Assembly (NCBI RefSeq): GCF_000426045.1
Contig: NZ_AUEP01000015.1
Location: forward strand, 58,721 to 122,720
Origin: Marmoricola sp. URHB0036
GTDB lineage: Bacteria > Actinomycetota > Actinomycetes > Propionibacteriales > Nocardioidaceae
Reading direction: 5' to 3'
Length of the DNA stretch: 64,000 nt
Under the pieces are notes generated by a model that searched no databases, had not been told where the DNA came from, and was given only the letters and a program-made list of their open reading frames with translations. Shown in pieces: positions 38,455 to 55,539 of this stretch. Position numbers and translations under genes: made by a program. Every line of letters starts with the position of its first letter. Positions within the stretch are counted from its first letter, which is position 1.

Positions 38455-38812
38455 TGTTCCTCCAGGGCAGCTCTGAATGCTCCGCGCGTCAGCTAGGAAC
38501 CAGATGCTGCCACGTGCGAGCTACCTCGGCACAGGCCCGCTCTCGGATGCAAGACCGCGGCGACGGCCATTCACGTTGCTGTCATGACCTGATAGCAAAC
38601 CGCTGAATCAGAGATCCTTGTCCTCGACCATTCGACCAGGACCACAACGTCCGTCGAAGACCTTCTCGAGCGCGGCGGTCAATGTGAGTCTCCTGCGGCA
38701 TTCCGTCGCGAACGCCCGGGTCGCCGGGGGGCTGTGGGCGCCCTGCGCGAGCGCTTACATGGCAGTTGGTTGGGCGGCGAGGTGGCGCGAACTCTGCGCG
38801 TGGGCGCGCGGG
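38455..38812. other. Intergenic stretch with one cassette site
   Basis: 358 bp without a supportable gene; it holds the repeat at 38695-38709. A 71-codon plus-strand frame here is Ala/Arg/Ser-rich and crosses the repeat, so I do not call it. Confidence 0.55.
38695..38709 (+). repeat. Cassette-site core copy
   Basis: GCGGCATTCCGTCGC, 13 of 15 to GCGTCWTTCCGCCGC, followed by GAACG as in the copy at 43055. Confidence 0.65.
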
Positions 38813-39634
38813 TCAAGGAAGCCACTCCTCTAGATGACCCGGGTGCGTCCGATACGGAAAAGCCAGGTATGAGGCGACAAGATCGACGATTTCATCGTCG
38901 CCGCGCTCGTTGAGCCTGCTGAGGATACGTCGCTTGGCCGTCGCATCTTCGGCGAGTCGCCTACCTAACCGGCAGTTGCACGTCTCCGAAGGAGCTGGTG
39001 GGACAGCGGCGCACTCTGACTCATGCGAATCTTGCGCAAGCACGTCCTCCTGCAGCACGACGTCAAGAAACGCCAGCAACCCAGGGCGCGCCATCTGGGT
39101 CACATCGAATGCCCCAACCTGGGATGCCATGGGAATGGGGTTGCAAAGCGTGATCCCAGCTTCCGCGTAGGCTGCTACCGGGTCGGGCCGTTGGCTGCGA
39201 TATTTAAGCGCCGTCAGACGAGCATCCTCATCCTTGGTGATCCAAGCCAACTGCAGTTCCCTGCTCAGGATCGCCACGACGTGAGCAGGCGACATCGCTT
39301 CGTTCAGAGTGGCTCGAATGGCTGACACAGGCTGGACGTGCTCGTAGTGGAAGACGATGCGGCCGGGATCAAATCTGGGCTGTGAGTGCCACGTCTCGCG
39401 ACTCAGATCGATGCCACCCTGGTCCGCCACGGCCTTGGCGGTCACGCTGATCGATGGTCTGCGAGCCGCCGGAAACGCTATGTCGCACAACTTGCGGATA
39501 TCCACGGCGATCGACTCGGCCAGACGAGCGCGTTGGAATTTGCTCAGCTCGGGATTCGAGCTAGCGCGCGACTTGTCCAGCAGCCCTCGGGCAAAAGGGA
39601 AGGCTAGAGATTCGAAGTCACTCAGCTCGGCCAT
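38813..39634 (-). CDS. Uncharacterised 273-aa soluble protein
   Basis: I do not recognise this protein. It lacks signal or membrane segments. HYEHVQPVSAIRATLNE (about 115-131) resembles a motif in hypothetical proteins around HNH or restriction genes, and a Cys-rich stretch (SECAAVPPAPSETCNCR, about 218-234) could bind metal. ATG 39634 lies six bases after TAAGTT on the minus strand, so the message may be leaderless. It is a single-gene packet between repeats at 38695 and 39721. Confidence 0.6.
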   Translation of the reverse strand: MAELSDFESLAFPFARGLLDKSRASSNPELSKFQRARLAESIAVDIRKLCDIAFPAARRPSISVTAKAVADQGGIDLSRETWHSQPRFDPGRIVFHYEHVQPVSAIRATLNEAMSPAHVVAILSRELQLAWITKDEDARLTALKYRSQRPDPVAAYAEAGITLCNPIPMASQVGAFDVTQMARPGLLAFLDVVLQEDVLAQDSHESECAAVPPAPSETCNCRLGRRLAEDATAKRRILSRLNERGDDEIVDLVASYLAFPYRTHPGHLEEWLP

Positions 39635-39720
39635 TGGCTCAACTTAGATGACACCCCCGACACAAGCCTTGACCTTGTCTTCGGTGACGGCGGCAGCTGG
39701 CAGAGAAGAGCGAAAGCACT

Positions 39721-39735
39721 GCGTCATCCCGCCGC
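39721..39735 (+). repeat. Cassette-site core copy
   Basis: GCGTCATCCCGCCGC, 14 of 15. CCCGCCG at 39728-39734 pairs with CGGCGGG at 39767-39773, giving an attC-sized hairpin of about 46 nt. Confidence 0.85.
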
Positions 39736-39781
39736 GTGTCGGGTCTTCATACTTGCGACTCGGCGACGGCGGGGCCGTGGG

Positions 39782-40375
39782 CTACACGTCAGTCGAGTAC
39801 AGCCAACCCGTGAATGGTCCGTCGAACATAGCCAAGCCGACCTGCGAGGTTATCTGGATCATGTTTCGGAACTGCATCTCATCGACATGGGTTCGTGCAA
39901 CGGCGCTCGACATCCAGAAATGCGTGTTGCCTTCTGTGCCGACAAAGCCCGAGAACTGCCTCTCGATCCTGCTGACCTGCTGGCTTCCAGGGATGACCTT
40001 GATATGCATCGGACGAGGTTGATCGAGGGGTGCAATCGACGCATGGATCTGGACGCTCACGCTGCCTGGCCGTGGCATGAGGTACACAGTGACGACCTTC
40101 TGCGCCACCGCAGTGGGCTCATGGCCCGAGTCGAGCGGCACCTCCCACATCGTCATGCCGTTCTCGTCTGGGACGGCACGGGCGTTCAGAAACCGACCCC
40201 GGATGGAAAAGTTCGCCTTGGCGGTATCGAACTCGTAGAAGACGGCGTCGGTCCCTGGCGGCTGGCTCGATCGGAATCGGACTCGGACGTCACCATCATC
40301 GTCGTAGTTCCAGGTCACGCCGGCCCGGTCGAGCGCTGAGCCAATCTCTTGGGCGTTGCCGCGTGTCAGGTCCAT
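39782..40375 (-). CDS. Uncharacterised 197-aa protein
   Basis: Predicted soluble, mixed alpha/beta. LDRAGVTWNYDDDGDVRVRF at the start and FWMSSAVARTHVDEMQFRNMI near the end give a loose resemblance to YbjN/type III chaperone-like folds, but this is weak. ATG 40375 has GGAAAGAG upstream. It is the only gene between repeats at 39721 and 40506. Confidence 0.55.
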   Translation of the reverse strand: MDLTRGNAQEIGSALDRAGVTWNYDDDGDVRVRFRSSQPPGTDAVFYEFDTAKANFSIRGRFLNARAVPDENGMTMWEVPLDSGHEPTAVAQKVVTVYLMPRPGSVSVQIHASIAPLDQPRPMHIKVIPGSQQVSRIERQFSGFVGTEGNTHFWMSSAVARTHVDEMQFRNMIQITSQVGLAMFDGPFTGWLYSTDV

Positions 40376-40505
40376 AGCTCTTTCCAGCCTGCGGGTGAAC
40401 GACCAGACGTGCCCTGGGCGCCGTCTGTCGGCTCGGACTCCTGCCGCGCAGCATATTGGAGCGCGCAGTTGAAAGGCAGTCGAACCAAGGCGCCGTCTTC
40501 GATGC

Positions 40506-40520
40506 GCGTCATTCCGCCGC
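40506..40520 (+). repeat. Cassette-site core copy
   Basis: GCGTCATTCCGCCGC, 15 of 15. AAGGCG (40487-40492) pairs with CGCCTT (40518-40523) across the core. Confidence 0.88.
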
Positions 40521-40542
40521 CTTCGAACGTCCTCGCCCCTGG

Positions 40543-40920
40543 CTAGATGGTGTCCTCCGCAAGGAGCTCAAGGAGCGCGAGCGCAGTTGTGGTCACGAAC
40601 CAACTCTCGTCCAGGTCGACGAAACCAGCCTCCTTGTCACTCGGATCATTCAGTTGAGCCTCTTGGACAACATCGATCAGGCTAAGCCGGCGCAAACGCG
40701 CGACCATCGGTCCCGTGACGACCTCGGAGACGTTAAGCGCCTTCGCCAGGAAGGCAGCGGCATCCGAAGGCCGTCGTTCGGACATGGCGAGAAGGGATCT
40801 AACGTCCACGGCTTCTAGCTGCTCCGCGATACGCAGCAGCTCCCTAACCTCGTCGACCCTGGCATCGTCTTCCGCAATCGCAGCCGAGGCAAGCACTCGA
40901 CCCAATAGTCGGATTTTCAT
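40543..40920 (-). CDS. Uncharacterised 125-aa helical protein
   Basis: Small soluble protein, mostly helix-forming, second gene of a two-gene unit. Its ATG overlaps the stop of the upstream gene by 4 bp. LLAMSERRPSDAAAFLAKAL and VARLRRLSLIDVV suggest a winged-helix-like core, but I cannot name a family. The tight coupling of two small genes is the layout of toxin-antitoxin and similar pairs, which is only a suggestion. Confidence 0.5.
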   Translation of the reverse strand: MKIRLLGRVLASAAIAEDDARVDEVRELLRIAEQLEAVDVRSLLAMSERRPSDAAAFLAKALNVSEVVTGPMVARLRRLSLIDVVQEAQLNDPSDKEAGFVDLDESWFVTTTALALLELLAEDTI

Positions 40921-41168
40921 TTCGGAACTGTGCGGACTGCACTTTCGACCGCTGCACGGAACATGTCGCTCAGTTCTTCATCGGCAGCAAGCTGGGCGAG
41001 CAGTTGCTCCATGCCGATCTCTGCCGAGGCCGTCTCGCCCAGCAACTGCGCCCGGCGTTGCTCGCGCTCGAACATTGCCTTACGCCAGTCCGCGACCAAG
41101 GGACCGTACTTCGGTATGAGACTGAGCATCAGTTGGCTCGTCGGGTGGGGGCCGAGATCTTCTTCCAC
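40917..41168 (-). CDS. Uncharacterised 83-aa helical protein
   Basis: First gene of the pair. An amphipathic helix from about 25 to 75 is rich in Glu, Arg and Leu. It starts at GTG 41168. No known motif. It overlaps the next gene (ATGA), so the two are probably translated together. Confidence 0.5.
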   Translation of the reverse strand: MEEDLGPHPTSQLMLSLIPKYGPLVADWRKAMFEREQRRAQLLGETASAEIGMEQLLAQLAADEELSDMFRAAVESAVRTVPK

Positions 41169-41249
41169 CGGTACATACTTGCAGGACAGACTGGACGATG
41201 CGGTTCAGTGGCCTGAACGTCTATTCGGACGATCCCTCCGAGGGCGCCC

Positions 41250-41264
41250 GCCCCATTCTGCCGC
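41250..41264 (+). repeat. Degenerate copy of the cassette-site core
   Basis: GCCCCATTCTGCCGC, 12 of 15, in the gap between the two-gene unit and the HEPN gene. Confidence 0.4.
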
Positions 41265-41389
41265 CAGCCGGTGAGGACGGATCGAGAGTTCCGTGGACAG
41301 GACGATCTGTAATCTTCCTGAAGGACAATGGACGCGTGGCGCCGAGAACGACCGGGCACGAGAGAGAAAAGCCGCGTGCGACCGTCTAT

Positions 41390-41860
41390 TTACGCGGCCG
41401 AGGTTGCGAAGCCACCGAGATACATGGCAGCGATACGTCGTGCCAGCTGCTCAAGATCCTCCACAGAGATGCGCGCCTTCCAGGTCACTGGACCACTGGC
41501 GCCCTTCCGGTTCCAGATCTCGACCCACTCGATTTCGCCTCCGTCATCGGCTCCGAACTCGACATTGAAATGCGCCACGGCATTGCGTAGATAGCGCAAG
41601 AAGTCTCGGAGGTCCTCTGGTTCGGAGCCCTCGAGAGTCGACAGCTTCGGCCAACCTTGCGCCCTCATCTTCGGCATCGGTGTGCGCGGGATCAGGCCAA
41701 CCTCGCGCTCGCGCGGAGCGACCACCAGTCCTAGTAGCGAATTCCACAGCTGCGTCACCGGATGGACGTCGTGGTTGCCGAGCGCCTCTTGTGCCTGGAT
41801 GTGGTCCAAGTTCTCTAGCGTCCGCGATGCGAAGTCACGGATTAGGTGCTTGTACTCCAT
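41390..41860 (-). CDS. HEPN-family RNase
   Basis: 156-aa protein of the HEPN nuclease family. The Rx4-6H active-site motif is RNAVAH at 92-97, on the helix after DLRDFLRYL; the upstream LWNSLLGLVVAPRERE and downstream GEIEWVEIWNRKG...VTWKARI match the family as I know it. HEPN RNases cut RNA and serve as toxins or abortive-infection effectors. No MNT-type antitoxin is adjacent, so it may act alone or be held in check internally. ATG 41860 lies six bases after TACGGT on the minus strand (leaderless). Confidence 0.82.
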   Translation of the reverse strand: MEYKHLIRDFASRTLENLDHIQAQEALGNHDVHPVTQLWNSLLGLVVAPREREVGLIPRTPMPKMRAQGWPKLSTLEGSEPEDLRDFLRYLRNAVAHFNVEFGADDGGEIEWVEIWNRKGASGPVTWKARISVEDLEQLARRIAAMYLGGFATSAA

Positions 41861-42195
41861 CCGGCGACCGTACCGAGGAGAGCGCGACAGGGCTCTGCCA
41901 TCCGTCGGGTCTTTCCGCCGCCTGTCGGACGGGGGCGTGTCGGCGCCCCTTGGGGGTGGGCTGGATATGCAGATGACCCGACGCTCGACCGGTGCGAGCT
42001 CCGGCCCGAATCGGTCTTGCGGAAAAGGTCATGCGGGCGTCTACGCCCCTGAACTGATCACGAGGGTGCAGCCGGATAGACCTCAGTCACGATCAGTCGG
42101 CGAGACTGGCCGTATTTGATGCGCCCGTCATCCCTTGGCCCTCCGATTCCTCGCCAAGGACCGACCTCGCCTTTGGGGTCGGTCGTAGCGGAGAT
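41861..42195. other. Intergenic stretch with one cassette site
   Basis: 335 bp holding the repeat at 41907-41921; no supportable gene. Confidence 0.5.
41907..41921 (+). repeat. Cassette-site core copy
   Basis: GGGTCTTTCCGCCGC, 14 of 15. CGACAGG (41885-41891) and CCTGTCG (41921-41927) form a perfect 7-bp stem spanning the core. Confidence 0.88.
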
Positions 42196-42432
42196 TCACC
42201 TATCGTCAATGCCCGGCCCGGTATCGAATTCGGTTTCGTTGGCCGAGGGGTTGACCTTTTCCCACCCGCGGTGGATATCAAGGGTCGTCTCTCCGTCCAG
42301 CACCTCGCCGGCACCGAAAAGAGTGAAGCTCGCGGGGTCACATGTCACGTTGCATGTGCGTGAGATGCCATCGATGTCGGCTGCCTTTCCTGTTGCAAGA
42401 ACCACGCCATCTTCGCCGAGCAAGCAATCCAC
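42196..42432 (-). CDS. Possible 78-aa acidic protein
   Basis: A GTG-started acidic frame whose composition is protein-like (balanced Asp/Glu, Gly, Val, Thr; two Cys at about 27 and 31). The overlapping plus-strand frame looks like its shadow. No motif is recognised and no clear RBS is seen, so it may be a fragment of an older gene. Confidence 0.35.
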   Translation of the reverse strand: MDCLLGEDGVVLATGKAADIDGISRTCNVTCDPASFTLFGAGEVLDGETTLDIHRGWEKVNPSANETEFDTGPGIDDR

Positions 42433-42655
42433 GTGTCGACCCCAAGGCCCCCACTCCAGTGCTCGGGCTCACGCTGAGCCTAGGCACTTCACGCATCTCG
42501 AATCGTCCCTCTTTTGTCCCGTAACGCCGCCGTAGGCCGACTTGCTGAGATCGTGGGAGCACGCTGCCAGCGGCGGAATGCTAAACGAAGGTGCGAGCGG
42601 CTGGCTATCGCATCAAGTCCCAAATGAACTCAGAGTTCCGAAGGAGGTGAAGAGC

Positions 42656-42850
42656 ATGGTTGGAAACGTCCCGCCCAACTACGGGCACCAGCAACAGGCT
42701 GACGCCGAGGCAACGCGGCGCGCTCAGGAGTACCAACAGCAGCTTGCCCACAAGCAGCAACTGGAGGAGCAGCGTCGTGCCGAAGAGCGTCAGCGAGCAC
42801 TGGATGCAGAGGCGCGTCGACGAGCGAGCGAAAACTCGCAGCGTCGATAG
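42656..42850 (+). CDS. 64-aa Gln/Arg-rich coiled-coil protein
   Basis: Short hydrophilic protein. From about residue 14 it is one long charged helix of Gln, Glu, Arg and Ala (QLEEQRRAEERQRALDAEARRR), with no hydrophobic core. The start is well defined: AGGAGGTG lies seven bases before ATG 42656. A strong hairpin follows, so this is a self-contained transcription unit. Function unknown; such peptides may bind nucleic acid or form coiled coils. Confidence 0.7.
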   Translation: MVGNVPPNYGHQQQADAEATRRAQEYQQQLAHKQQLEEQRRAEERQRALDAEARRRASENSQRR

Positions 42851-42866
42851 CCCACACCACATGTAG

Positions 42867-42895
42867 CCGCTCCCGAGGTCTGGTCTCGGGAGCGG
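42867..42895 (+). terminator. Intrinsic terminator after coiled-coil gene
   Basis: Perfect 11-bp arms CCGCTCCCGAG and CTCGGGAGCGG with a 7-nt loop, then TCTACTAT. Confidence 0.75.
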
Positions 42896-43054
42896 TCTAC
42901 TATGACGCCGCCTCGACCGCAGGCGATGTGGCGCGGCGCGTGCATAGCGTCCGAACGTACGAGATCGAACAGAAAGTTCAATGGCCTTTTCCCTCGGCCA
43001 CGGCTGGCCAGGCATTGACCGGGATGTCGAAGCTCTTTATGACGGTGAACGTAT

Positions 43055-43069
43055 GCGTCATTCCGCCGC
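43055..43069 (+). repeat. Cassette-site core copy
   Basis: GCGTCATTCCGCCGC, 15 of 15; CCGCC in the core can pair with GGCGG at 43086-43090. Confidence 0.85.
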
Positions 43070-43202
43070 GAACGGGGCCAATAGTGGCGGCACCCCCGGT
43101 GCAACATGTGCTAACGCGGACTATGCCAGTCGGTCGAGAGCCGGGCTCATCGTTGACACCCCTCATCTGCCACATCACGCTCGACTGAAGGGGGTGGTTC
43201 TC

Positions 43203-44681
43203 GTGGCCACGACGGGCAGCCCAGCTGAATCACTGCAGAACAAGCCAAAGGGTGAGGAAGAGGGAGGCTCTTGGAAGAGAGCCAGGGCTGCCCTCGATCG
43301 GCTAGCTGAACCATGGAGCGATTCCACGCTTTGGCTCTCGCTTCAGGTGCTCATCGTCTGGACCATCACCAGTTGGGTGCTCCTGCAGGCCGATCTCCAG
43401 AAGGGCTCAGACACTGACGCAAACAATTGGATTCGGGGCGTCCTAGTTGTCGCATGGCTACTCTTCATAGCCCGCTATCTAATGCTGCTCGTAATGCGTG
43501 ATCGGCCTAGCCCCAATCCGGAGTTCGTCATCGACTACACGCTTTGGCAGCAGGCCGATGCCATGACGAGGTTCGCCGCGCAGCGCGGAAAGACGCCGGA
43601 CGCACGAGATCTCGCGACCGTGCGCAAGTACGACAGTGTTTCGTTCGACAAGCCATCCACCAAGCGCATGAACGAGATCGCCGAAGCTCACCAGCACCTA
43701 TCCCGGCTCGTCGCCCCCGCAGTGCCCATGACGATCCTTCTTCTGTGGGAGAACACATATCAAGTAAAGCCGGAGGACGAGGACGTAGACGCGGAATCTC
43801 GCCACAGACACACGCCGCGGCGCCTCGTCCAAAGCTTCAGCTGGCTCGGCAACGTGCGACTCGCGCGCATGATGCTGGGACTGGCCCTGGCCCTCCTTCC
43901 CGTCTTCATCGCGCTGGCCCTGTATAAGGGCAGCTCACTCGCCAAGCCTGAGGACCTGGTCACCGGGGGTTTCGTCAGCAAGGCCGCTTCTGCTGCCTAC
44001 CTAATCGTTGCGTCGGCCCTTGGCGCCGCCTTCGCAGCCTTGTTCAAGGTGCGGAAGTACGTGGAGCACCTGAACTATGACCCGCAGTACGAGTCGTCGT
44101 ACTGGGTGCGGTTTGTGCTCGGCCTTGTGGCGGGCCTACTGCTCTCAGTGCTGCTCGTGACGCTGCTCCCGGACCAAAAGGAGGCTGATGCATTTCGCAT
44201 CACCCTGCCAATCCTGGCGCTCGTTGGGGGGTTCTCCTCCGACCTCGTATACCGAATTTTAAAGAGACTCATCGATTCGATCGAGACGTTGATCGAAGGC
44301 AGCGCCAGCGAGATCAATGAAGCCGAGAAGACGCGGAGTGACGCGAGGCTGCGCGAACTAGAAATGGAATCGCGTCAGCACCTTAACGAGAGCCTGCTGG
44401 CAGGTAAGCGAGTCGAGGCAAAGTCGTTGATTGAGACTCGCAAGTTGCTACCTCACGGCACAGGTGGCGACGAAGCGCGCAAGCAGATTGACGCCCGCCT
44501 AGCGGCGCTCTTCGAAGAAGCTGAAGTCGACGATGACGATGACGATGACAGCGGCCGTGACGGCAAGGACCCGATGTTGGAAGCGGACCAGCAGGAGGAC
44601 AACGCTCCTTTGGATGATGCGCGCCGGCAAGAGCGAGGCGACGACGCCGTGGTGGATGACGTGCCACCAACGCGGTCATGA
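43203..44681 (+). CDS. Multi-pass membrane protein with acidic tail
   Basis: 492-aa protein I do not recognise. Predicted helices are at about 43-62 and 77-93 (N-terminal pair) and four in the middle (about 218-238, 253-275, 300-322, 329-350). The C-terminal 120 residues form a cytoplasmic helix (RLRELEMESRQHLNESLL), then an Asp run (DDDDDDD, about 448) and a Glu/Asp-rich tail. GTG 43203 is preceded by GAAGGGGG. It occupies the packet between repeats at 43055 and 44782 alone. Confidence 0.7.
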   Translation: MATTGSPAESLQNKPKGEEEGGSWKRARAALDRLAEPWSDSTLWLSLQVLIVWTITSWVLLQADLQKGSDTDANNWIRGVLVVAWLLFIARYLMLLVMRDRPSPNPEFVIDYTLWQQADAMTRFAAQRGKTPDARDLATVRKYDSVSFDKPSTKRMNEIAEAHQHLSRLVAPAVPMTILLLWENTYQVKPEDEDVDAESRHRHTPRRLVQSFSWLGNVRLARMMLGLALALLPVFIALALYKGSSLAKPEDLVTGGFVSKAASAAYLIVASALGAAFAALFKVRKYVEHLNYDPQYESSYWVRFVLGLVAGLLLSVLLVTLLPDQKEADAFRITLPILALVGGFSSDLVYRILKRLIDSIETLIEGSASEINEAEKTRSDARLRELEMESRQHLNESLLAGKRVEAKSLIETRKLLPHGTGGDEARKQIDARLAALFEEAEVDDDDDDDSGRDGKDPMLEADQQEDNAPLDDARRQERGDDAVVDDVPPTRS

Positions 44682-44781
44682 TGACGACCCTTCCCCGCCG
44701 ACAGAGACGACACGGGGCTAGGCGCCTAGGCGCGGTGTTGGGTTGCCCACCCGAACCCACATCGCGCCACACCCGAAACCC

Positions 44782-44796
44782 GCGTCTTTCCGCCGC
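44782..44796 (+). repeat. Cassette-site core copy
   Basis: GCGTCTTTCCGCCGC, 15 of 15. It is flanked by GCGCCACACCC (44764-44774) and GGGTGCGC (44800-44807), which pair with small bulges. Confidence 0.88.
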
Positions 44797-44940
44797 AAAG
44801 GGTGCGCCCCCGGGACGCCCAGGATGATCTAGCGATCTGTTCCTCGTTGTCCGTGGCGTGTCGACAGGGCGCGCTGCCTGCGCTTCGTAAGGTCAACTCA
44901 TGGATGCGTCGCATTCGGCGCGGTTGGTTGGCGTCTTCCG

Positions 44941-45519
44941 ATGAGGGCATCCCGCCTGGTGGCTGTGATCGTCCTCGTGTTTGCGATTGCCTGCGCGTTC
45001 TACCTGTTCCAGCGCAGAACGACGACGGCAGGCTTCGTGGCAGCGGCTGACCTTCCGGCCTTCCATCAACTGGAAGAGCGTGACATACGTCGATCCGAGG
45101 TAAGCGCCGCCGACCTTCCCGACGGCACCGTGCGTTCGCGGAGTGAGCTGATCGGCCACTACACAATGGGCCGAGTCCAGCAGGACCACCCCTTTGACAG
45201 AGCCGGACTTGGCCCCGAACTACCGCCACACTCCGTGACGGGGATGGCCATTATGGGACTGGACTTGACACCCGCGAGCTCGCTTGGGGGCACGCTTTCC
45301 GCTGGAGACCTCGTGACGATCGTGCAGGTACCCGATGGCAAGGGGCTCGCGCCTGTTGCAAGCGACCGGATCCGACAGGTACGTGTGCTGGCCGTGGTCA
45401 AAGACCAGAAAGCAATTCTCGTAGCCCTCAACCCTGACCAAGCCAAGGCCTTTAGCTCCGGCGCTGCGAGCAGACCTCGCATCCTCGTTCTACGAACGAC
45501 CCCGTACTCAGGACCTTGA
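44941..45519 (+). CDS. SAF-domain (CpaB-like) membrane-anchored protein
   Basis: 192-aa protein: an N-terminal membrane helix (about 5-23), then a SAF domain with FVAAADLPAFHQLEERDIRRSEV (about 31-53), and a second half LSAGDLVTIVQV (about 119-130). The fold is shared by CpaB pilus proteins and antifreeze-like domains, so this one probably sits outside the membrane. The chromosomal Tad locus at 1-6 kb has no CpaB, but a functional link is speculation. Its end overlaps the convergent next gene by 12 bp. Confidence 0.75.
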   Translation: MRASRLVAVIVLVFAIACAFYLFQRRTTTAGFVAAADLPAFHQLEERDIRRSEVSAADLPDGTVRSRSELIGHYTMGRVQQDHPFDRAGLGPELPPHSVTGMAIMGLDLTPASSLGGTLSAGDLVTIVQVPDGKGLAPVASDRIRQVRVLAVVKDQKAILVALNPDQAKAFSSGAASRPRILVLRTTPYSGP

Positions 45520-48145: not shown

Positions 48146-48210
48146 AGATGCCTATGTGCTCCTGATCAGGTCGCCCGAGACAGGATGTTGCAGTCCTCGC
48201 TCGAGCTGAT

Positions 48211-48225
48211 GCGTCATTTCGCCGC
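48211..48225 (+). repeat. Cassette-site core copy
   Basis: GCGTCATTTCGCCGC, 14 of 15. GCTCG (48199-48203) can pair with CGAGC (48238-48242). Confidence 0.82.
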
Positions 48226-48292
48226 GGGTCGGCCACGCGAGCAGCACCTATTTTGGCGCCATGCGGCGGACGGCATCTGTCAGACTCTCTCC

Positions 48293-48841: not shown

Positions 48842-49199
48842 GAAATTCCTTCCATCGAGACCAGGCCTTCATCTTGCATCAGCCCCACGAGCAACGTGAT
48901 CCGAATGCGTGTGGGCAAGGGAAGCGCCTTGGGCTCGCGTCTTTCCGCCGCCTTCGTGACATCCATGTTTAGCTTGCGATCGACCTGGGTCAGAGGCACG
49001 TGGCAGCTTGCGCGCCACTTCGCCGCCTGTTCGCTCACGTGGTCCGCGGCAGGCAACGCTTGGGTTGGGCTGCACGCAGTCGACCTGGCGCTCTTCTACG
49101 CGGTCTTAGAACCGCGGGGTGGCTGGGGCCTAGTCTGAGTCACTGCCCGTGCGGACCGCTCTCCGAGTAGCCGTTGCGTGCCGAGCTGAGGAGTTTCCG
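48842..49199. other. Intergenic stretch with one cassette site
   Basis: 358 bp; holds the repeat at 48937-48951. Open frames on both strands are shadow-like. Nothing else seen. Confidence 0.5.
48937..48951 (+). repeat. Cassette-site core copy
   Basis: GCGTCTTTCCGCCGC, 15 of 15; GAAG upstream (48921-48924) and CTTC downstream give only a weak stem. Confidence 0.85.
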
Positions 49200-49979
49200 A
49201 TGGGCTGGGAAGAAGCGGGTATTGCCTGGAGCGATCGCGCAGTTGACTGGGCGTACTTGATGGAGCCGCTCTTCACTCCTGTCTATGAAACGCTCGGCAG
49301 GTCTCTCGCTCTCCAGCCGACCCACTCGCTGCTCGACATCGGGTGCGGAGGCGGCCGTGCTCTGCAGGGATACGCGGCACAGGGATTTCAGGTCGCTGGT
49401 ATCGACGCCGCAGAGGGTCTGCTCAGCATCGCGCGTCTCCGCGCGCCGCAAGCCGACCTGCGACAGGGTTCCCTGACCGAGCTGCCCTGGCCGGATGGCA
49501 CCTTCGACGCAGTCACTGGCGTGAACTCCTTCGTGTACGCCGACGACGGCGGACTCTCGGAAGCCTTCCGGGTGCTCAAGCGCGGCGGAAGGTTGGGCAT
49601 CGGGTTCTGGGCCGACCCCATGGACTTCGTGTTCTGCATGACTGCCCTGGGAAGGGCTTTGGGTCCGTATGTCGCCCCGACGAGCACCAACACCCCCTTG
49701 GCCATGTCCGAGCCAGGGAGGGCGCGTGAGCTGCTCGCGGCGGCCGGCTTCGACGTACTCAACTCCGGCTCCGTCGATTGCGTCAGCGAGTTCGCGGACG
49801 CAGAGACGGCCTACCGAGGGTTGGCCTCGACGGGAATGATCTACCCCATTGTCCAAGACGACGCGGAGGCGGACCTGCGGGCCGAAGTCATGGATGACCT
49901 CCGCTCGCGGTATTCAGTCGCCGACGGCATCAGGATGCACGCGTCCATCGGCTGGCTTGTCGCCGAGCGATCACGCTGA
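49200..49979 (+). CDS. Class I SAM-dependent methyltransferase (type 11)
   Basis: 259-aa methyltransferase. LLDIGCGGGRALQGYAAQG (about 44-62) binds SAM, GIDAAEGLLSIAR is motif II, and LTELPWPDGTFDAVTGVNSF (about 91-110) is motif IV with post-I. EAFRVLKRGGRLGIGFW follows. Substrate unknown, small molecule likely. GAGGAG lies six bases before ATG 49200. It lies alone between repeats at 48937 and 50064. GC content is closer to the core genome than that of its left neighbours. Confidence 0.85.
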   Translation: MGWEEAGIAWSDRAVDWAYLMEPLFTPVYETLGRSLALQPTHSLLDIGCGGGRALQGYAAQGFQVAGIDAAEGLLSIARLRAPQADLRQGSLTELPWPDGTFDAVTGVNSFVYADDGGLSEAFRVLKRGGRLGIGFWADPMDFVFCMTALGRALGPYVAPTSTNTPLAMSEPGRARELLAAAGFDVLNSGSVDCVSEFADAETAYRGLASTGMIYPIVQDDAEADLRAEVMDDLRSRYSVADGIRMHASIGWLVAERSR

Positions 49980-50063
49980 CGCCACCCCGTGAAAGCGTGC
50001 CCGGCTTACCGCCCGGGGAGTTGAAATGTCCATCTCTTGACCGCGCGGAACCCGGGCCAACCC

Positions 50064-50078
50064 GCTTCTTTCCGCGAG
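50064..50078 (+). repeat. Degenerate copy of the cassette-site core
   Basis: GCTTCTTTCCGCGAG, 11 of 15. CGCGGAA (50044-50050) and TTCCGCG (50070-50076) form a perfect 7-bp stem across it. Confidence 0.55.
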
Positions 50079-50111
50079 ACGACGATGGCAGGAGCGGATC
50101 TATGACAATGG

Positions 50112-50732
50112 CTAGTGGCTGGTTGAACCTGCCCCTCCTCGTGACAGTTCGGCTCGCCACCAGGCACCGCTCTCGATCCGCTCAACTCGGCGCAGGATGA
50201 GGTCGCCGATGGCAAACTCCTCGAGCTCTGCACGGGTCAGCGGCCACGGCGGTCCTGTCACCTCGGAGCCTTCGTCCCGTGTGGTCGCCAGGACCAGCAG
50301 AGTGCCTTCTGGTGCCACCAACGCGGCAATGTTCTGCGCCGCCACTGTGTGGTGCTCGAAGGGCATCGACTGCACGGTCAGACTCTCTACGACCAGGTCG
50401 AACCTGCCCTGCCACTCACGGGGAAGATCCAAGACGTCGGCAACGAACCCATTCACCTCGCTGGCTGGGTACTTTCGCCGCGCTCCAGCAATCGCGGTCG
50501 GCGCGAAGTCAAACCCCGTTGTGCGAAATCCCAACAGCGCAAGGAACTCGGCGTCAGCGCCGTAGCCGCACCCCACCACCAGCGCCTCGCGGCCGCCACC
50601 AGCTAGGTTTCGCGCCTCGGCCCACTCCACGAACTGGGGACGAGGGCCGCCGTAGTCCCACGGCGGCTTGGCTCCACCGGCCTCCGCGCCTGTGTAGATC
50701 GCCTCGAACTTGCCAGATGGCTCGCCCGTCAC
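50112..50732 (-). CDS. TPMT-like SAM-dependent methyltransferase
   Basis: 206-aa class I methyltransferase resembling the thiopurine methyltransferase group. The N-terminus FEAIYTGAEAGGAKPPWDYGG is typical, followed by ALVVGCGYGADAEFLALLG (about 49-67), TGFDFAPTAIAGAR and the VADVLDLPREWQGRFDLVVE region. Probably acts on a small thiol, selenium or halide compound. GTG 50732 lies six bases after TAGTCT on the minus strand (leaderless). It lies alone between two repeat copies. Confidence 0.85.
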   Translation of the reverse strand: MTGEPSGKFEAIYTGAEAGGAKPPWDYGGPRPQFVEWAEARNLAGGGREALVVGCGYGADAEFLALLGFRTTGFDFAPTAIAGARRKYPASEVNGFVADVLDLPREWQGRFDLVVESLTVQSMPFEHHTVAAQNIAALVAPEGTLLVLATTRDEGSEVTGPPWPLTRAELEEFAIGDLILRRVERIESGAWWRAELSRGGAGSTSH

Positions 50733-50830
50733 GACTCGAGACTACCTATCAGATTGTTCCCGCGGGACAAGTCGAGACCTGGCCTGAGTTTCTATCCGTT
50801 CGATGCCGCAGGGCCGCGGTCAGTACACCT

Positions 50831-50845
50831 GAGTCATTCCGCCGC
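50831..50845 (+). repeat. Cassette-site core copy
   Basis: GAGTCATTCCGCCGC, 14 of 15. Here the core itself is part of a hairpin: CGCCGC-CTG-GCGGCG at 50840-50854. Confidence 0.82.
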
Positions 50846-50946
50846 CTGGCGGCGTTCTCATCTGGCGATCGCCGGTCGTTCTGCGGACAGGACCCGACAT
50901 TCGGGGCAGTGGCGGAACCTGGGGGTTAGTGCGGCCCCGCGCGTCG

Positions 50947-52902
50947 TCAACTGCTGTCGTTCCTCAGCAGTTGTCGTACGAGGTCCGGAGTGAAGCGGCG
51001 CCAATGCTCCCGGTCTTGTGAGACCTCGGTGGCCCCGGGTGCGCCCCTGGCGAAGAGGTCACCCACCAGCCGCGGGGTGACATCCTCGCCAGCTGCGGGG
51101 TCTGTGAATGTCCGTGCGCCGTCGTGGGAGATGCGGTATGGGGCTCGATAGTCGCCGGTGATGATGGTGCCGTCGGGCCAGACCCTGAAGCTGGCCGGCC
51201 CTTCGCCTTGTGGGTAGGGGCCGAGCTCCAATGTCCAGGTCGCGCCCGCGTCGAGGCTCACGTACATCGTGCGTCGCCCTGGCACCAGCAGGGTGGATCC
51301 GGTGCCCTGAACGTCTCGGGCACCGATGCCAGGTCCGAGGTCGTGACTCGTCCAGGGCCCACCTGGCACCGCCGAGCGCACCACCGTGCGGCCGGGCGCT
51401 TCATTGCCCAGAGCCCACATCCGGCCCCGTCCGTCGTTCGCGTAGACGAGGCCGTCTGGTGAGGCGGTTCCGGTGAACTCCGCAAGGTCGCTGCGTCGGA
51501 AGACCCAACCGCCCTGGACGAAGGTGTCACCTGACGTGACAGGACGCCTGGCTGAGAAGTCGAAATCGACCGGGACCGAGCGTCCCGCAGCATCCACGAA
51601 CTGCACTCCGGCGTCCGTGGACAGTACGAACCCGTCGCCGGCCGCGTCCACGTCCGCGCCGCGCGTGAGTCCCTCGGCAACGATCCGGTCCATGCGGTCA
51701 TAGAGGCGCCAGGCCGACTTGGGCCCGCGGCCATAGGTGACCAAGACCAGTCCGTGACGGCCCAACGCCACGTCGTGCGGGCCGAGCTGACTGATTCGAT
51801 CGGCGGCGCTGGGCTGGGCAGGCAGGCGCAGGTCCGCGGCCGGTGCTGCTGGGGCTGTGCGGGCATCGCCCGCGGCATCGATCACCTGGCGCCACGTCGT
51901 GCCGTCGTCCGCCGACATCCAGACCAGGTGGTGAAGCGCATGCTCGGGGGCCTGGTCTGCCAGCCCGTAGAGGCGGTGTCCGGACGAGAGCACGGTCGTG
52001 ATCGGGCCGGCGTCGAGTGCGTCGTACGTGGTGTTGGTTGCGTCGGTCCCGCGCCAGAGCTGGCCGTTATAGGGGCCGAGCAGGACTCGCCCGTCAGGCA
52101 GGAGGTACGCCAGCTCGGGGTCCTGTGCCGCCTGCGGGGGCTCGGTCACGCGGGTCCAGGACGTGCCGGTGTCGTCGCTGACGAACATGTCCCCAGTGGG
52201 GGTTCTCGTCCAGAGGGCGGCGGAGTCCCCACGGACCATCAACTGGTCGACCGCGGCTGGCAACGGTTGGCTCGCCGAGGACTTCGTCCCGTCGGACACA
52301 GTCACTGTGTTGTGGGCCCCGGCGGACCAGATGCGTCCGCGCGAGTCGATGGCTAGGACGGAACGTGGAAGCAGGTACAGGCCGTGCGACCGGGGAGAGT
52401 AAGCGCAGCCATGCGGGACATCGTCCGTCCCGAAAATGCTGCACAGCACCTTCCCGAACTCACCGCGGCCGAGGTACGTGTCACCGGCTTGCGGCTCTCC
52501 TTCTTCGTGCGTCACGGCCACTCTGGTCTCGTGAAGTGGGTCGGAAAGGTCGACCGCATCGGTGAAGTCCCCGGCGTCCGAGCCCAGCAGTCCGGAGTCC
52601 ACGCGCACGACTGCCGGGCAGCCCGCGTGGGCTTTCCGCAGCCACCCGGTCACCGTCCCATCGCTGTGGACCTGTCGGAAGTAGCAGTGGTGGCCCCCTT
52701 CGTAGGTCAGCACCAAGGATCCGTCGCCGGTCGTCTCAGCTTGCGAGGGCCCCAAATGCGCTCTGACCAAGGCGACCCCGGCCGCGGGCTCCGTCGCCGT
52801 TCGGTGCGCAGCCGGTTGGTGGTGGCCGGCACCGCCGCTGCACGCCCCGCTCACCATCAAGCACATCAGCACCGCCCCTGTGCCGACCAGCCCCCGACCC
52901 AC
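50947..52902 (-). CDS. Secreted beta-propeller (BNR/sialidase-like) protein
   Basis: 651-aa exported protein. The signal peptide (GLVGTGAVLMCLMVSGACSGG) ends in a possible, imperfect lipobox (SGAC). Repeats of the BNR type are visible: MFVSDDTGTSWTRV, WMSADDGTTWRQV, MYVSLDAGATWTLE and YRISHDGARTFTD, so a beta-propeller is likely. No catalytic sialidase residues can be pointed out; a surface-binding or sensor role is as likely. GTG 52902. The next gene upstream on the same strand is another lipoprotein, and the two may be one operon (87-bp gap). Confidence 0.72.
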   Translation of the reverse strand: MGRGLVGTGAVLMCLMVSGACSGGAGHHQPAAHRTATEPAAGVALVRAHLGPSQAETTGDGSLVLTYEGGHHCYFRQVHSDGTVTGWLRKAHAGCPAVVRVDSGLLGSDAGDFTDAVDLSDPLHETRVAVTHEEGEPQAGDTYLGRGEFGKVLCSIFGTDDVPHGCAYSPRSHGLYLLPRSVLAIDSRGRIWSAGAHNTVTVSDGTKSSASQPLPAAVDQLMVRGDSAALWTRTPTGDMFVSDDTGTSWTRVTEPPQAAQDPELAYLLPDGRVLLGPYNGQLWRGTDATNTTYDALDAGPITTVLSSGHRLYGLADQAPEHALHHLVWMSADDGTTWRQVIDAAGDARTAPAAPAADLRLPAQPSAADRISQLGPHDVALGRHGLVLVTYGRGPKSAWRLYDRMDRIVAEGLTRGADVDAAGDGFVLSTDAGVQFVDAAGRSVPVDFDFSARRPVTSGDTFVQGGWVFRRSDLAEFTGTASPDGLVYANDGRGRMWALGNEAPGRTVVRSAVPGGPWTSHDLGPGIGARDVQGTGSTLLVPGRRTMYVSLDAGATWTLELGPYPQGEGPASFRVWPDGTIITGDYRAPYRISHDGARTFTDPAAGEDVTPRLVGDLFARGAPGATEVSQDREHWRRFTPDLVRQLLRNDSS

Positions 52903-52989
52903 GGTGTGATCGTTTCACCGGCTGACGACCCAGTCGAGGCCTGACACGAGGAGTCGGCACCGGCCAGGTGGACTGTTCGGTCGCGTAAG

Positions 52990-54129
52990 TTACGGCACGG
53001 GTTGCCAGGCGGGCGAATACACGCTTCCGGTGACACCGCCCAGCCCATGGGCGTGGCGGGCAAAGGCAGTCAAAGGCTGCACCACCTGGTGGGGCTCGCT
53101 GCCGTCGGCGTTCGCGACCCACACGGCGCCGTGGTCGATGTAGGCGAACTGGCGGCCGTCAGGGGACCAGACCGGTTCGGATTGAGCGCACAGGCGTCTC
53201 AGGAGCAGGGTGGGGTGCTGCAGATTTGCATCGGTGGCGTAGACGTTGCCGGCGCAGGAGGCGCCCCGAGTCTGGAGTCCCTGGGCGAGGATGACTCGGC
53301 AGTTCGTCCAGGACCAGTCCCAACCCAGGAGATTCCTCGCGCCCGGTATCTGGGCGGCGTGCCCCCCGGTCGTGGCGTCCACCGTGAACAGCCCCGAGGT
53401 CCGGGTGTAGTCGTCGGGGCCAGGCCCCTTCTTGGTTGCGCCAACGAGTAGATGGGCGCCGTCGGCCGACCAGCGCGGGCCAACTGGCCCGAACCAGCCC
53501 TCAGCGCCGAACGGCAGCCGACGCGGCCGCAGCGTCGCCAGATCGAGCACCCACAGACCCCGAGACTGCACCCCGAACGCGAGCCGCGTGCCGTCAGGAG
53601 ACCAGGTCGGGGCCCCAACGGGGCCGCGGGTGACCAAGGCCCGTGGGCGGGAGCCGTCGGCGTCCATGACCCACAGCGAGCGCTCGTAGTTGCCGCGCCA
53701 GTTCGCCCGCACGAACGCGATCTGGGTGCCGTCCGGGGACCAGGCCGGGCTGCCGGCGTCCAGGGTCTGCGTCAACCGCCGCAGATGGGTGCCATCGCTG
53801 TCGGCGATGTAGATGTCCCCAGGGGCGTTGACCTCCTCGGAGTTGATGTCGATGGTGGGATTGCCGTCGAACGCGATCATTCCGTTACCGGGCCGTCCCC
53901 GGTGCGGTGCACAGCCGCCGCTCGCCGGAGTCTCTAGCGCCGAGGACCGACCCGACCCGGATGTCGACTGGATGGTGCTCGGTGAGGGATCGCTGGGCGT
54001 GGGCGAGCTCCTCGCCGGGGGCGTTGCCGCGGAGCCGGTCCGTTCCGAGCTCGGGCCTGAGGTGCCGCTGCCGCCGACCGAACACCCCGCGACAAGGGCC
54101 AAGGTGACCAGCGCGCTGACGCGTCCCAT
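52990..54129 (-). CDS. TolB-like PD40 beta-propeller lipoprotein
   Basis: 379-aa lipoprotein. Signal peptide with lipobox ALVAGC (about 11-16), a Ser/Pro/Thr-rich linker (17-75), then WD40-like PD40 repeats: SPAWSPDGTQIAFVR, APTWSPDGTRLAFG, GPRWSADGAHLLVG and EPVWSPDGRQFAYID. Each has the D-x-D-G-T-x preceding strand typical of TolB propellers (IADSDGTHLRRL, MDADGSRPRAL). It is probably a surface-exposed binding or regulatory protein. ATG 54129 lies seven bases after TAGCCT on the minus strand. Confidence 0.82.
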   Translation of the reverse strand: MGRVSALVTLALVAGCSVGGSGTSGPSSERTGSAATPPARSSPTPSDPSPSTIQSTSGSGRSSALETPASGGCAPHRGRPGNGMIAFDGNPTIDINSEEVNAPGDIYIADSDGTHLRRLTQTLDAGSPAWSPDGTQIAFVRANWRGNYERSLWVMDADGSRPRALVTRGPVGAPTWSPDGTRLAFGVQSRGLWVLDLATLRPRRLPFGAEGWFGPVGPRWSADGAHLLVGATKKGPGPDDYTRTSGLFTVDATTGGHAAQIPGARNLLGWDWSWTNCRVILAQGLQTRGASCAGNVYATDANLQHPTLLLRRLCAQSEPVWSPDGRQFAYIDHGAVWVANADGSEPHQVVQPLTAFARHAHGLGGVTGSVYSPAWQPVP

Positions 54130-54258
54130 ACGGACAAGGCTAGGTCAGATCAGCACCGGAACCGTCGGCTCGTTACGACGTTTAAGCCGGCGCAGATCTG
54201 CCGCAGACGCGCACTCTGCGGCTGCCCTGGTCTCCTGCCGTCTGAGCGTCCCAGCGAT

Positions 54259-54273
54259 GCGTCATTCCGCCGC
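54259..54273 (+). repeat. Cassette-site core copy
   Basis: GCGTCATTCCGCCGC, 15 of 15. CCGTC (54238-54242) pairs with GACGG (54276-54280), with GCG/CGC inside. Confidence 0.88.
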
Positions 54274-54298
54274 GTGACGGGCTCTGCTTCCTGAGCAC

Positions 54299-54901
54299 TC
54301 ACTGCTTGGCTGCGCTCGCCTCCGACGAAGCGCGCCGTCGGCCCGTAAGGGTGAGCAGGTGGGACTGGATCGGTGCTTCCTTCTCGAGGCCGTCGCCGTA
54401 CGTCCAGTCCGCGTCCGTGGCGACCAGCCGCACGCCGCCTGGCGGGTCCCACATCCGCATCGGGCCGCGCAACAAGAGCACCCGGTCTGCGGCCGCGACC
54501 GCCGCGTCGACCGGCATGGGGTGCTCGATGCCCAGCGGCACGCAGATGTCCTGGGAGTGCACCAGGATGTCGAGGAGTGGCTCCAGCTCGGTGACGAAGG
54601 GAGCCCTCCGACGTGAGCCGACGAAGCCGCGGAGCGTGGCCACGATCTGGGTGTGGGTCAGCGGGCTGTGAAGGGCGGCGTACCGGATCATCTCGTTGTA
54701 GCGGAAGCCGGTCCTGACCGCCGGCCAGGCCACGTCACGCAACCGGGCGTGAGAGAACGTCAGGTGCGCGCCGACGTCCCGAACGCTCCATCCTTCACAC
54801 AGGCTGTGCTGCTCCCACGCTGTCTGCGGGAGCGACTCCAGAAGGCCGGCCAACTTCGAGCGCTCGGTGTCGATGTGCTGCCAGATCGTCTCGCTGTCCA
54901 T
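54299..54901 (-). CDS. DinB-like maleylpyruvate isomerase family protein
   Basis: 200-aa protein of the mycothiol-dependent maleylpyruvate isomerase N-domain/TIGR03083 type. WEQHSLCEGWSVRDVGAHLTFSHAR (about 29-53) carries the first metal His, and DILVHSQDICVPLG (about 110-123) the other two. Members bind divalent metal and use mycothiol or related thiols in actinobacteria. It is divergent from a MarR gene, with a perfect palindrome between them, so the MarR protein probably controls it. Confidence 0.82.
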   Translation of the reverse strand: MDSETIWQHIDTERSKLAGLLESLPQTAWEQHSLCEGWSVRDVGAHLTFSHARLRDVAWPAVRTGFRYNEMIRYAALHSPLTHTQIVATLRGFVGSRRRAPFVTELEPLLDILVHSQDICVPLGIEHPMPVDAAVAAADRVLLLRGPMRMWDPPGGVRLVATDADWTYGDGLEKEAPIQSHLLTLTGRRRASSEASAAKQ

Positions 54902-54925
54902 GGCGTGGCGCCTGCCTCATGTGCG

Positions 54926-54946
54926 TTAGACAGATTATCTGTCTAA
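54926..54946. promoter_or_regulatory. Perfect palindromic operator
   Basis: Arms TTAGACAGAT and ATCTGTCTAA flank a single T. The right arm overlaps TAATCT (54944-54949), the likely -10 of the leaderless MarR gene, so binding would block transcription. Size and placement fit autorepression by MarR. Confidence 0.75.
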
Positions 54947-54955
54947 TCTGGCACG

Positions 54956-55399
54956 GTGCCCACAGACCGTCAAGAGCCGAACCTTGGCATCCTGCTGTTC
55001 GTCGCCTACAGAGCGCTCGAGCAGCGGGCGCACGACGCCGTCATTGCGGCCGGCAGCACGGACATCACCCTCGCGCAGGCCCGCATCGCAGCCCGGATAG
55101 GCCCACACGGAACCCGCGTCTCCGACCTGGCCGAGCAGGCCCGAGTCACCAAGCAAAGCGCCGGATTCCTCGTCGACCAGCTTGAAGCGGCCGGGTACGT
55201 CGAGAGAGTCCCCGACCCCACCGACCGCCGCGCTCGACTCGTGCGGCTCACGGCCCGCGCCGACAGAGTGGTCAAGACAGCAAATGCAGAGGTGGAGCGG
55301 GTCCTAGCCGAGTGGGCCGACCACGTCGGGGCCGACCGTCTCCGACGGGTGCACGAGACCCTCCTAGACCTGCGGGAGATCACCGACCCATGGCGGTGA
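54956..55399 (+). CDS. MarR-family transcriptional regulator
   Basis: 147-aa winged-helix repressor. The DNA-binding region has ITLAQARIAARIG, VSDLAEQARVTKQSAGFLVDQLEAAGYVERVPDPTDRRARLVRLT (about 55-100), including the Asp/Arg wing typical of MarR proteins. GTG 54956 lies six bases after TAATCT (leaderless). It probably binds the palindrome at 54926-54946 and controls itself and the divergent DinB-like gene; the ligand is unknown. Confidence 0.9.
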   Translation: MPTDRQEPNLGILLFVAYRALEQRAHDAVIAAGSTDITLAQARIAARIGPHGTRVSDLAEQARVTKQSAGFLVDQLEAAGYVERVPDPTDRRARLVRLTARADRVVKTANAEVERVLAEWADHVGADRLRRVHETLLDLREITDPWR

Positions 55400-55524
55400 G
55401 GGCTGCCTCAAGAAACCCGGCGCACGCCCACGGCGGTCCGCAAGGCAGTAGATCGACGGCGACCCGCCGCCGGTCGGACGCACGAACTGCAGCTGGGACG
55501 CGGGACTGCCCGCCCATCGACCCC

Positions 55525-55539
55525 GCGTCATAGCGCCGC
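55525..55539 (+). repeat. Cassette-site core copy
   Basis: GCGTCATAGCGCCGC, 13 of 15; lies between the MarR and SDR genes. Confidence 0.65.

What the first reader, a model, noticed from the sequence alone, without database searches (positions are those of the whole stretch)
38695..55539. A family of same-strand intergenic sites (core GCGTCWTTCCGCCGC) divides the accessory region into gene packets like an integron cassette array
Seen: cores at 38695, 39721, 40506, 41907, 43055, 44782, 48211, 48937, 50831, 54259 and 55525 match at 13-15 of 15 positions. Weaker copies lie at 30759, 36189, 41250, 46780, 50064 and 56811, and a one-base-shorter copy at 63294. Apart from the doubtful 34015 match, every copy lies between called genes and reads on the plus strand, even when the neighbouring genes run on the minus strand, which argues against a promoter or terminator role. 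Packets hold one to three unrelated genes (KAP NTPase; HEPN; membrane protein; zinc ribbons; methyltransferases). Known: integrons show exactly this layout, with attC sites in one orientation. Inference: this is an integron-like cassette array whose sites lack the GTTRRRY core of classical attC.
Basis: partly seen in the sequence, partly recalled or inferred. Interest (0 to 1): 0.92.

Follow-up and report, generated by a model that had tools for sequence, protein, structure and literature searches.

The report
Integron-like gene arrays in actinobacteria
Certain actinobacteria keep accessory genes, including predicted phage defences, in rows of packets separated by a short DNA mark that nearly always points the same way, and a XerD-like recombinase encoded in many of these rows likely moves the packets much as integrons move genes in other bacteria.

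Summary
In detail: 11 cores at 38695-55525 match at 13-15 of 15 positions, all on the plus strand. Relatives of it in 79 loci from Nocardioides, Terrabacter, Intrasporangium, Ornithinimicrobium, Jiangella and others sit in arrays of the same site. There the sites lie on the recombinase's strand 225 to 1 or 317 to 1 (weight matrix), 311 of 317 outside called genes. Similarity between loci breaks at sites far more often than chance. The window's own methyltransferase packet recurs in another genus with similarity starting at a site. Packets hold varied genes; one is a complete CBASS operon. It works like an integron but is not one: the recombinase is not IntI, the site is a ~25-bp dif-like core without convincing attC-like folding, and cassette genes point either way. 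The window's genome holds no intact recombinase copy, so this array may be inactive. Excision and integration are untested.

The parts
34282..35192 (+). Tyrosine recombinase (XerC/XerD-like) gene, frameshifted near 34905: residues 1 to about 210 read in one frame (ORF 34282-35322), the half with HSLRH, ARHADP and EHYDRA in another frame ending at 35192
   Evidence: PF02899; homologues; sequence; frames read apart; full-length relatives have both domains
35223..35247 (+). Attachment-like site behind the recombinase stop: second-type right half TCGCCCAGTTTGACGC at 35231-35246; left arm degenerate
   Evidence: Sequence; same element 18-60 nt behind the stop in 26 of 60 loci by a strict pattern, chance 0.027 per locus. 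Matrix score of this copy is -11.6 because the matrix models the other right half
38695..38719 (+). Array site, 2 mismatches
   Evidence: 13.9
39721..39745 (+). Array site
   Evidence: 24.2
40506..40530 (+). Array site
   Evidence: 26.3
41250..41274 (+). Borderline array site
   Evidence: 10.9
41907..41931 (+). Array site
   Evidence: 21.3
43055..43079 (+). Array site
   Evidence: 27.5
44782..44806 (+). Array site
   Evidence: 24.5
48211..48235 (+). Array site
   Evidence: 26.7
48937..48961 (+). Array site
   Evidence: 21.8
49012..49036 (+). Array site, weaker
   Evidence: 15.5
50064..50078 (+). Damaged array site, core three bases shorter than in the homologous packet of another genome
   Evidence: matrix score -3.5
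50831..50855 (+). Array site
   Evidence: 28.6
54259..54283 (+). Array site
   Evidence: 30.6
55525..55549 (+). Array site
   Evidence: 17.5
56812..56836 (+). Array site, 3 mismatches but good right half
   Evidence: 22.0
36397..38454 (-). KAP P-loop NTPase, PifA-like
   Evidence: PF07693 3.9e-53; PADLOC PifA 6.5e-54
41390..41860 (-). HEPN protein packet
   Evidence: PF18736 2.7e-20
42981..44681 (+). Gene without a Pfam hit between sites 43055 and 44782; start likely later than 42981
49149..49979 (+). Methyltransferase gene
   Evidence: PF08241 3.9e-18
50112..50732 (-). Methyltransferase packet shared with other genera, left similarity edge at a site
   Evidence: PF13649, PF05724

Best explanation
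The window holds an integron-like cassette array: a ~25-bp polar site repeated on one strand divides accessory genes into packets, and a XerD-like tyrosine recombinase encoded in the array, here frameshifted, likely recombines these sites to insert, delete and reorder packets. Shown: the site family, its strand polarity, its linkage to one recombinase clade, its place outside genes, and similarity breaks at sites. Inferred: the recombinase binds imperfect inverted arms (GCGTC on the left, a weak GRCGC on the right) around a nearly invariant, non-palindromic centre CGCCGC, and strand exchange there joins sites head to tail, so that a packet leaves or enters as a circle carrying one site. Also inferred: the recombinase gene itself travels as a packet, since a site lies about 110-190 bp upstream of its start in most loci and an attI-like, nearly palindromic site often follows its stop codon. 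Packets would then act as a store of niche genes such as phage defences. In the window's own genome the recombinase is broken, so this copy may be a fossil unless another enzyme acts on it.
For: Strand: 225 to 1 and 317 to 1 in 79 loci. Place: 311 of 317 outside called genes, 98.5 expected. Linkage: arrays surround recombinases of this clade; loci of 32-50% identical recombinases lack the site. Breakpoints: upstream of the recombinase, 47 of 861 pairs are at least 75% alike on the gene side and have a median of 0.53 on the other side, random 0.54; 173 left ends of recombinase-bearing alignments at a site in both sequences (0.78 expected) and 7 ends of other alignments (0.04 expected, at most 1 in 300 shuffles). 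Single packets with different neighbours: L111/L122, L097/L145, L178/L179, C8/C19 of the own genome. The window's own packet in another genus. Catalytic residues R155, K182, H246, R249, H272, Y281 invariant in 15 homologues.
Against: No reaction was observed. The window's recombinase is frameshifted and the rest of its genome has only a C-terminal piece; 16 of 62 copies elsewhere are interrupted or lack the motifs searched. Of 4838 recombinase-bearing alignments 4665 do not begin at a site in both sequences, the 173 come from 44 related loci and are not independent, and at least 170 of 177 other alignments do not end at one. An earlier, stricter count found 1 end. An upstream site was missing in 21 of 63 loci and the strict site behind the stop in 34 of 60. 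The right arm is weakly conserved. The enzyme-site pairing rests on linkage only.
Confidence: 0.82

Rival explanations
1. It is a true integron whose attC sites have drifted beyond recognition.
For: Same layout of a recombinase beside an array of polar sites; the bottom strand downstream of the site folds slightly more stably than control in 2 of 10 comparisons (p 0.0015 and 0.0057).
Against: The recombinase scores 46 bits against a 265-bit cut-off for IntI but 96 for XerC (cut-off 335), and aligns to IntI4 only over the last 57 residues but to XerD over nearly its whole length. The fold effect nearly vanishes when the core is kept and the flank shuffled (z -0.23 +/- 0.10). Cassette genes lie 187 to 144 against and with the sites.
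Confidence: 0.05
2. The sites are dif-like modules worked by the host's XerC and XerD, and the linked recombinase is only a passenger.
For: A short core with inverted arms resembles dif; arrays of dif modules exist in Acinetobacter chromosomes and plasmids (PMC12907356 abstract). Site groups also occur without a recombinase match (G003, G020).
Against: Acinetobacter dif sites are 28 bp with a more variable 6-bp centre (PMC6449649 passages) and some modules are flanked by inversely oriented sites (a cited title there); here the centre is the most conserved part and orientation is 317 to 1. Sites track one recombinase clade and are missing beside other recombinases tested. Host XerC and XerD were not tested.
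Confidence: 0.08
3. The repeats are regulatory or structural elements (terminators, promoters, REP-like repeats, or a polar chromosome motif like KOPS).
For: Short, intergenic, polar.
Against: Gene strand does not follow site strand (187 to 144); sites are clustered; similarity breaks at them; they track a recombinase.
Confidence: 0.02
4. The sites are passive hotspots at which RecA-dependent recombination between islands tends to break.
For: Breaks at a shared short sequence would look alike.
Against: The shared sequence is only 15-25 bp, short for homologous recombination (recalled), and nothing in this model explains the link with one recombinase clade and its strand.
Confidence: 0.03

Closest known systems
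Integrons (IntI, attI, attC), above all sedentary chromosomal integrons and CALIN
   Same: Tyrosine recombinase beside a long array of one-way sites; small packets of mostly one gene; content varied and including phage defence; attI-like site next to the recombinase; arrays without a working recombinase
   Different: Recombinase not IntI; site a short core with invariant centre and no convincing folded structure; packets' genes in both orientations; recombinase itself has sites on both sides and can occur twice in one array (L102); host phylum nearly lacks integrons (PMC9024848 passages)
dif/pdif modules of Acinetobacter (XerC/XerD)
   Same: Gene modules between short sites with inverted arms, in linear arrays (PMC12907356 abstract)
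   Different: Here one orientation, most conserved centre, 25 bp instead of 28, and a dedicated recombinase in the array (PMC6449649 passages)
XerC and XerD
   Same: Best match by sequence; same two domains and catalytic residues
   Different: 96 bits against a cut-off of 335 (XerC) and 86 against 330 (XerD); found inside arrays

Membership tests
Integron | Integrase of the IntI family | tested here: not met
   TIGR02249 43-52 bits in three intact homologues, cut-off 265. A search of 98 relatives with that family found none, but its control genomes rang nowhere, so it does not show absence
Integron | IntI-specific insertion in the catalytic domain | tested here: inconclusive
   Alignment with XerD runs through without a large insertion, but IntI4 aligned only over the last 57 residues; the AlphaFold2 model was too poor (pLDDT 52)
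Integron | attC sites: R box GTTRRRY (recalled) and conserved folded structure | tested here: not met
   The core shows no GTTRRRY; no convincing fold: 2 of 10 comparisons nominally significant, small effect after shuffling flanks
Integron | Primary site (attI) beside the integrase gene | tested here: met
   By analogy: upstream site in 42 of 63 loci, site behind the stop in 26 of 60
Integron | Array of cassettes between sites of one orientation | tested here: met
   317 to 1; 240 packets, median 1356 bp
Integron | Cassette genes co-oriented, read from a platform promoter | tested here: not met
   187 against and 144 with the site strand; promoter not tested
Integron | Excision and integration by the integrase | not testable with these tools
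   Only breakpoints could be compared
Acinetobacter-type dif modules | 28-bp site, conserved arms, variable 6-bp centre | tested here: not met
   25 bp, centre CGCCGC at 95-99%, right arm weak
Acinetobacter-type dif modules | Worked by host XerC and XerD | not tested
   Linkage to another recombinase argues against
Simple tyrosine recombinases (Xer-like) | Catalytic R, K, H, R, H, Y and SAM-like plus catalytic domain | tested here: met
   R155, K182, H246, R249, H272, Y281 invariant in 15 sequences (assigned by alignment to XerD); PF02899 and PF00589

The most novel reading that the evidence does not exclude
Actinobacteria have a second, independently evolved counterpart of the integron: a XerD-derived recombinase that carries its own attachment sites and shuffles a chromosomal library of accessory and phage-defence cassettes through short double-stranded sites with an invariant CGCCGC crossover, in the very phylum where integrons are nearly missing.
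Probability: 0.7. Interest if true: 0.93.

Novelty: new variant of a known kind. Interest (0 to 1): 0.87.

Why it matters
Integrons are the textbook platform for stockpiling and shuffling genes, and the IntegronFinder 2.0 paper reports that actinobacteria lack complete integrons and that the reasons for such gaps are unclear (PMC9024848 passages). A separate platform of the same logic in soil actinobacteria would offer a direct answer, would show that cassette arrays arose more than once from Xer-like recombinases, and would give a simple sequence signature for finding hidden stores of phage-defence and other niche genes. Integron searches that look for IntI and the attC fold would be expected to miss it.

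Tried and rejected
Bare 15-mer statistics in the window: weak at 3 mismatches. Promoter, terminator or genome-wide polar motif: set aside because of clustering and indifference to gene strand; in whole genomes the pattern count is close to its reversed control in some (G003 5 and 11 against 6 and 4; G020 11 and 11 against 9 and 7; G066 4 and 11 against 6 and 8; own genome 34 and 19 against 18 and 23 at 2 mismatches), so it is grouping, not total number, that stands out. Folded attC-like site: ten fold comparisons, two nominally significant on the bottom strand downstream; with the core kept and the flank shuffled, z -0.23 +/- 0.10. A loose motif GCCGATGAGC is enriched downstream with a peak at +30 to +50, meaning unknown; the upstream search gave nothing positioned. 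Own sites for the 47-50% recombinases: no repeated word stood out in their two 20-kb loci. First breakpoint count, leaving out alignments near recombinases, gave 1 end in 70 alignments (0.01 expected). Structure: the one AlphaFold2 job gave pLDDT 52 (its alignment A2 held some aberrant homologues), so no fold search was run. Programmed frameshift: dropped, because frameshifted homologues break at differing places and intact 303-aa ones are common.

The matrix was trained on 195 plus-strand sites of the same loci, so 225 to 1 is the cleaner figure. Searches used 63, 62 and 60 of the 79 loci (those with a near-complete recombinase match). Gene calls come from my own coding-score script, not a standard gene finder. 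The 132 cassette proteins scanned are a random draw from 250 length- and score-filtered genes of 331; how many of them are defence genes was not counted. The ten proteins were chosen by hand; 7 of 10 gave a hit at 1e-10.
Full report
What was checked. The 11 strong cores are at the stated places, all on the plus strand. Within the window alone the 15-mer at 3 mismatches is barely above chance (20 against 11.9), so the case rests on what follows. The window is 64 kb of a 4.83-Mb draft genome in 22 contigs. The better sites elsewhere in that genome fall mostly in a few same-orientation groups (C1 45-72 kb, C11 41-43 kb, C14 start, C19 end, C8 start, C1 324-325 kb). G+C falls from about 0.70 to about 0.61 between 26 and 50 kb.

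The missed gene. At 34282-35192 lies a tyrosine recombinase. The N-terminal half reads in one frame (SAM-like domain) and the half with HSLRH, ARHADP and EHYDRA in another, so it is frameshifted. Homologues are many: 2036 proteins at E 1e-10 among the 7996 best candidates (120 listed), intact ones about 303 residues long. Among the genome and its relatives 24 of 148 genomes, own included, match at 1e-15. The own genome has only this broken copy and a C-terminal piece on C11, near another site group. In a sample of 396 genomes of the phylum only the own genome matched at 1e-80, so the system is patchy. A scan of named genomes with an intact homologue returned 79 loci (111 stretches matched, 92 coded a relative, best 80 kept), from Nocardioides, Jiangella, Terrabacter, Intrasporangium, Ornithinimicrobium, Serinicoccus, Phycicoccus, Pedococcus, Humibacillus, Flexivirga, Mumia and others. 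In 46 of 62 loci with a near-complete gene it is one open frame.

Strand and place of sites. In these 79 loci, turned so that the recombinase is on +, the pattern GCGTCWHWCCGCCGC at up to 1 mismatch occurs 225 times on + and once on -; the reversed pattern 6 and 3 times. A 30-position matrix gives 317 and 1 at score 14, with 5 in shuffled sequence, over 1.24 Mb. Of the 317, 311 have their midpoint outside called genes, 98.5 expected. Of 240 packets, 107 hold one called gene and 36 none; median length 1356 bp. Genes other than the recombinase lie 187 against and 144 with the sites. In six genomes searched whole, good sites group: G008 at 1.978-2.025 Mb and 2.870-2.877 Mb, G033 with three minus-strand groups and one plus-strand group; the remaining matches are scattered and near the control count. 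G003 and G020, without a recombinase match, still have small groups. Loci of recombinases only 32-50% identical show no site of score 11 or more, apart from one of 14.5 on the other strand in L055; for most of these only 3-4 kb were held, 20 kb for two.

Anatomy of the site. Conservation runs from about -4 to +22: GCGTC on the left, positions 9-14 CGCCGC at 95-99%, then a weaker right arm around [GC][AT]G[TC][CG]GGC. Thus GCGTC and GRCGC flank about 15 bp, an imperfect inverted repeat around a non-palindromic centre; that is the make-up of a short double-stranded tyrosine-recombinase core (inference). Beside the recombinase two sites recur. One lies 110-190 bp upstream of its start, in 42 of 63 loci. 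The other follows its stop: its right half is of another type, CCCA[GC]WWWGACGC, making the best copies nearly palindromic. A strict pattern for that half starts 18-60 nt behind the stop in 26 of 60 loci, chance 0.027 per locus; 3 more have the common type and 31 neither. The second right-half type also occurs in arrays: 17 on + and 0 on - for the strict form, 6 of the 17 behind a recombinase.

Breakpoints. At the upstream site the flank on the recombinase side is alike between loci while the other flank is not: 47 of 861 pairs have at least 75% identity on the gene side, and these have a median of 0.53 (largest 0.59) on the other side, as random DNA (0.54). Across 124 loci, 4838 alignments of 110 bp or more contain the recombinase on both sides; 173 begin at a site in both sequences (0.78 expected), from 44 related loci, so they are not independent. 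Of the 177 alignments without it, 7 have an end at a site in both sequences (0.04 expected, at most 1 in 300 shuffles). Most alignments of either kind do not end at a site in both, as expected for old or non-array similarity, but this leaves the well-bounded cases few. Six pairs end 0 to 7 nt behind CGCCGC. Examples: L097/L145 (Phycicoccus), 2410 bp at 91%, recombinase included, from site to site (the left site of L097 is below the matrix cut-off); L111/L122 (Nocardioides), 2344 bp at 93%, behind the recombinase in one and about 3 kb in front of it in the other, diverging right behind the core; C8 and C19 of the own genome, 98.4% identical over 493 bp up to +21 of a site, then unrelated; L128/L189, 1111 bp at 96.7%, starting at the site in both. 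L102 carries two recombinase copies about 4 kb apart, the second interrupted.

The window's own packet. The methyltransferase packet 50072-50765 matches 17 loci; in 6 a site in the same orientation lies within 200 nt, and in L155 (87% identity, another genus) similarity starts 11 nt into an intact site, where the window has a site with a core three bases shorter. The other 11 have no site that near, so the gene also lives outside arrays.

Contents. The 132 sampled cassette proteins match 93 Pfam families, none in more than 3 members, and include strong hits to phage-defence models. L120 holds cyclase, E1-E2, JAB and NucC genes, a complete CBASS set, at 11347-15380 between the recombinase and the next site at 15410; L151 a reverse transcriptase of the UG17 group, L131 a SIR2 protein, L107 a type IV restriction enzyme. 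In the window: a KAP NTPase like PifA and a HEPN protein, and further 5' a PDC-S54 protein and weakly Dsr1-like and GapS1-like proteins.

What it is. It works like an integron. It is not filed as one: the recombinase scores far below the IntI cut-off and nearest to XerC and XerD, though below their cut-offs too, the site shows no convincing attC-type fold, and genes are not co-oriented. Nor is it a dif module of the Acinetobacter type: one orientation, conserved centre, a recombinase in the array. Ten paper searches in an open-access library that lacks most subscription journals and states that it holds no bioRxiv preprints listed no such system; passages (PMC9024848, PMC8138268, PMC6449649) or the abstract (PMC12907356) were seen of four papers, the rest only as listings. 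Absence from print is therefore not proven.

Limits. No reaction was seen. The own genome's recombinase is broken, and 16 of 62 copies elsewhere are interrupted or lack the motifs searched, so many arrays may be fossils, like CALIN among integrons.

Noticed in passing
window 25692-34072: Genes 5' of the array with phage-defence resemblance: a PDC-S54 protein (29285-30613, 246 bits), a weakly Dsr1-like protein (25692-29228) and a weakly GapS1-like protein (32528-34072), the last two far below NCBI's cut-offs.
   Followed up: partly
recombinase homologues: Many homologues are frameshifted between about residues 205 and 245, at differing places; the list is biased because the query is frameshifted there. 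Frequent loss of the enzyme while arrays remain is possible.
   Followed up: partly
L102:9862-15170: Two recombinase copies in one array, the second interrupted, with three sites at 24-bp steps in front of it (14027, 14051, 14075).
   Followed up: no
L075-L153, arrays and recombinase 3' ends: Two types of right half follow the same left half, GC[GC][AT]G[TC]CGG and CA[GC]WWWGACGC; in arrays the second type was seen mostly 5' of the recombinase (12 of 14 by a loose pattern). Meaning unknown.
   Followed up: partly
25-110 nt downstream of array sites: A loose motif GCCGATGAGC with a peak at +30 to +50; partly complementary to the right arm, but no clear fold signal.
   Followed up: partly
G000 contig ends C8:1-497, C14:1-2067, C19:84508-85015: Several contigs of the own genome break inside or beside site groups, so the arrays are probably incompletely assembled.
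   Followed up: no
G003:C1:284399-287662, G020:C1:2857294-2863045: Small site groups in genomes without a recombinase match, like integron remnants without integrase.
   Followed up: no
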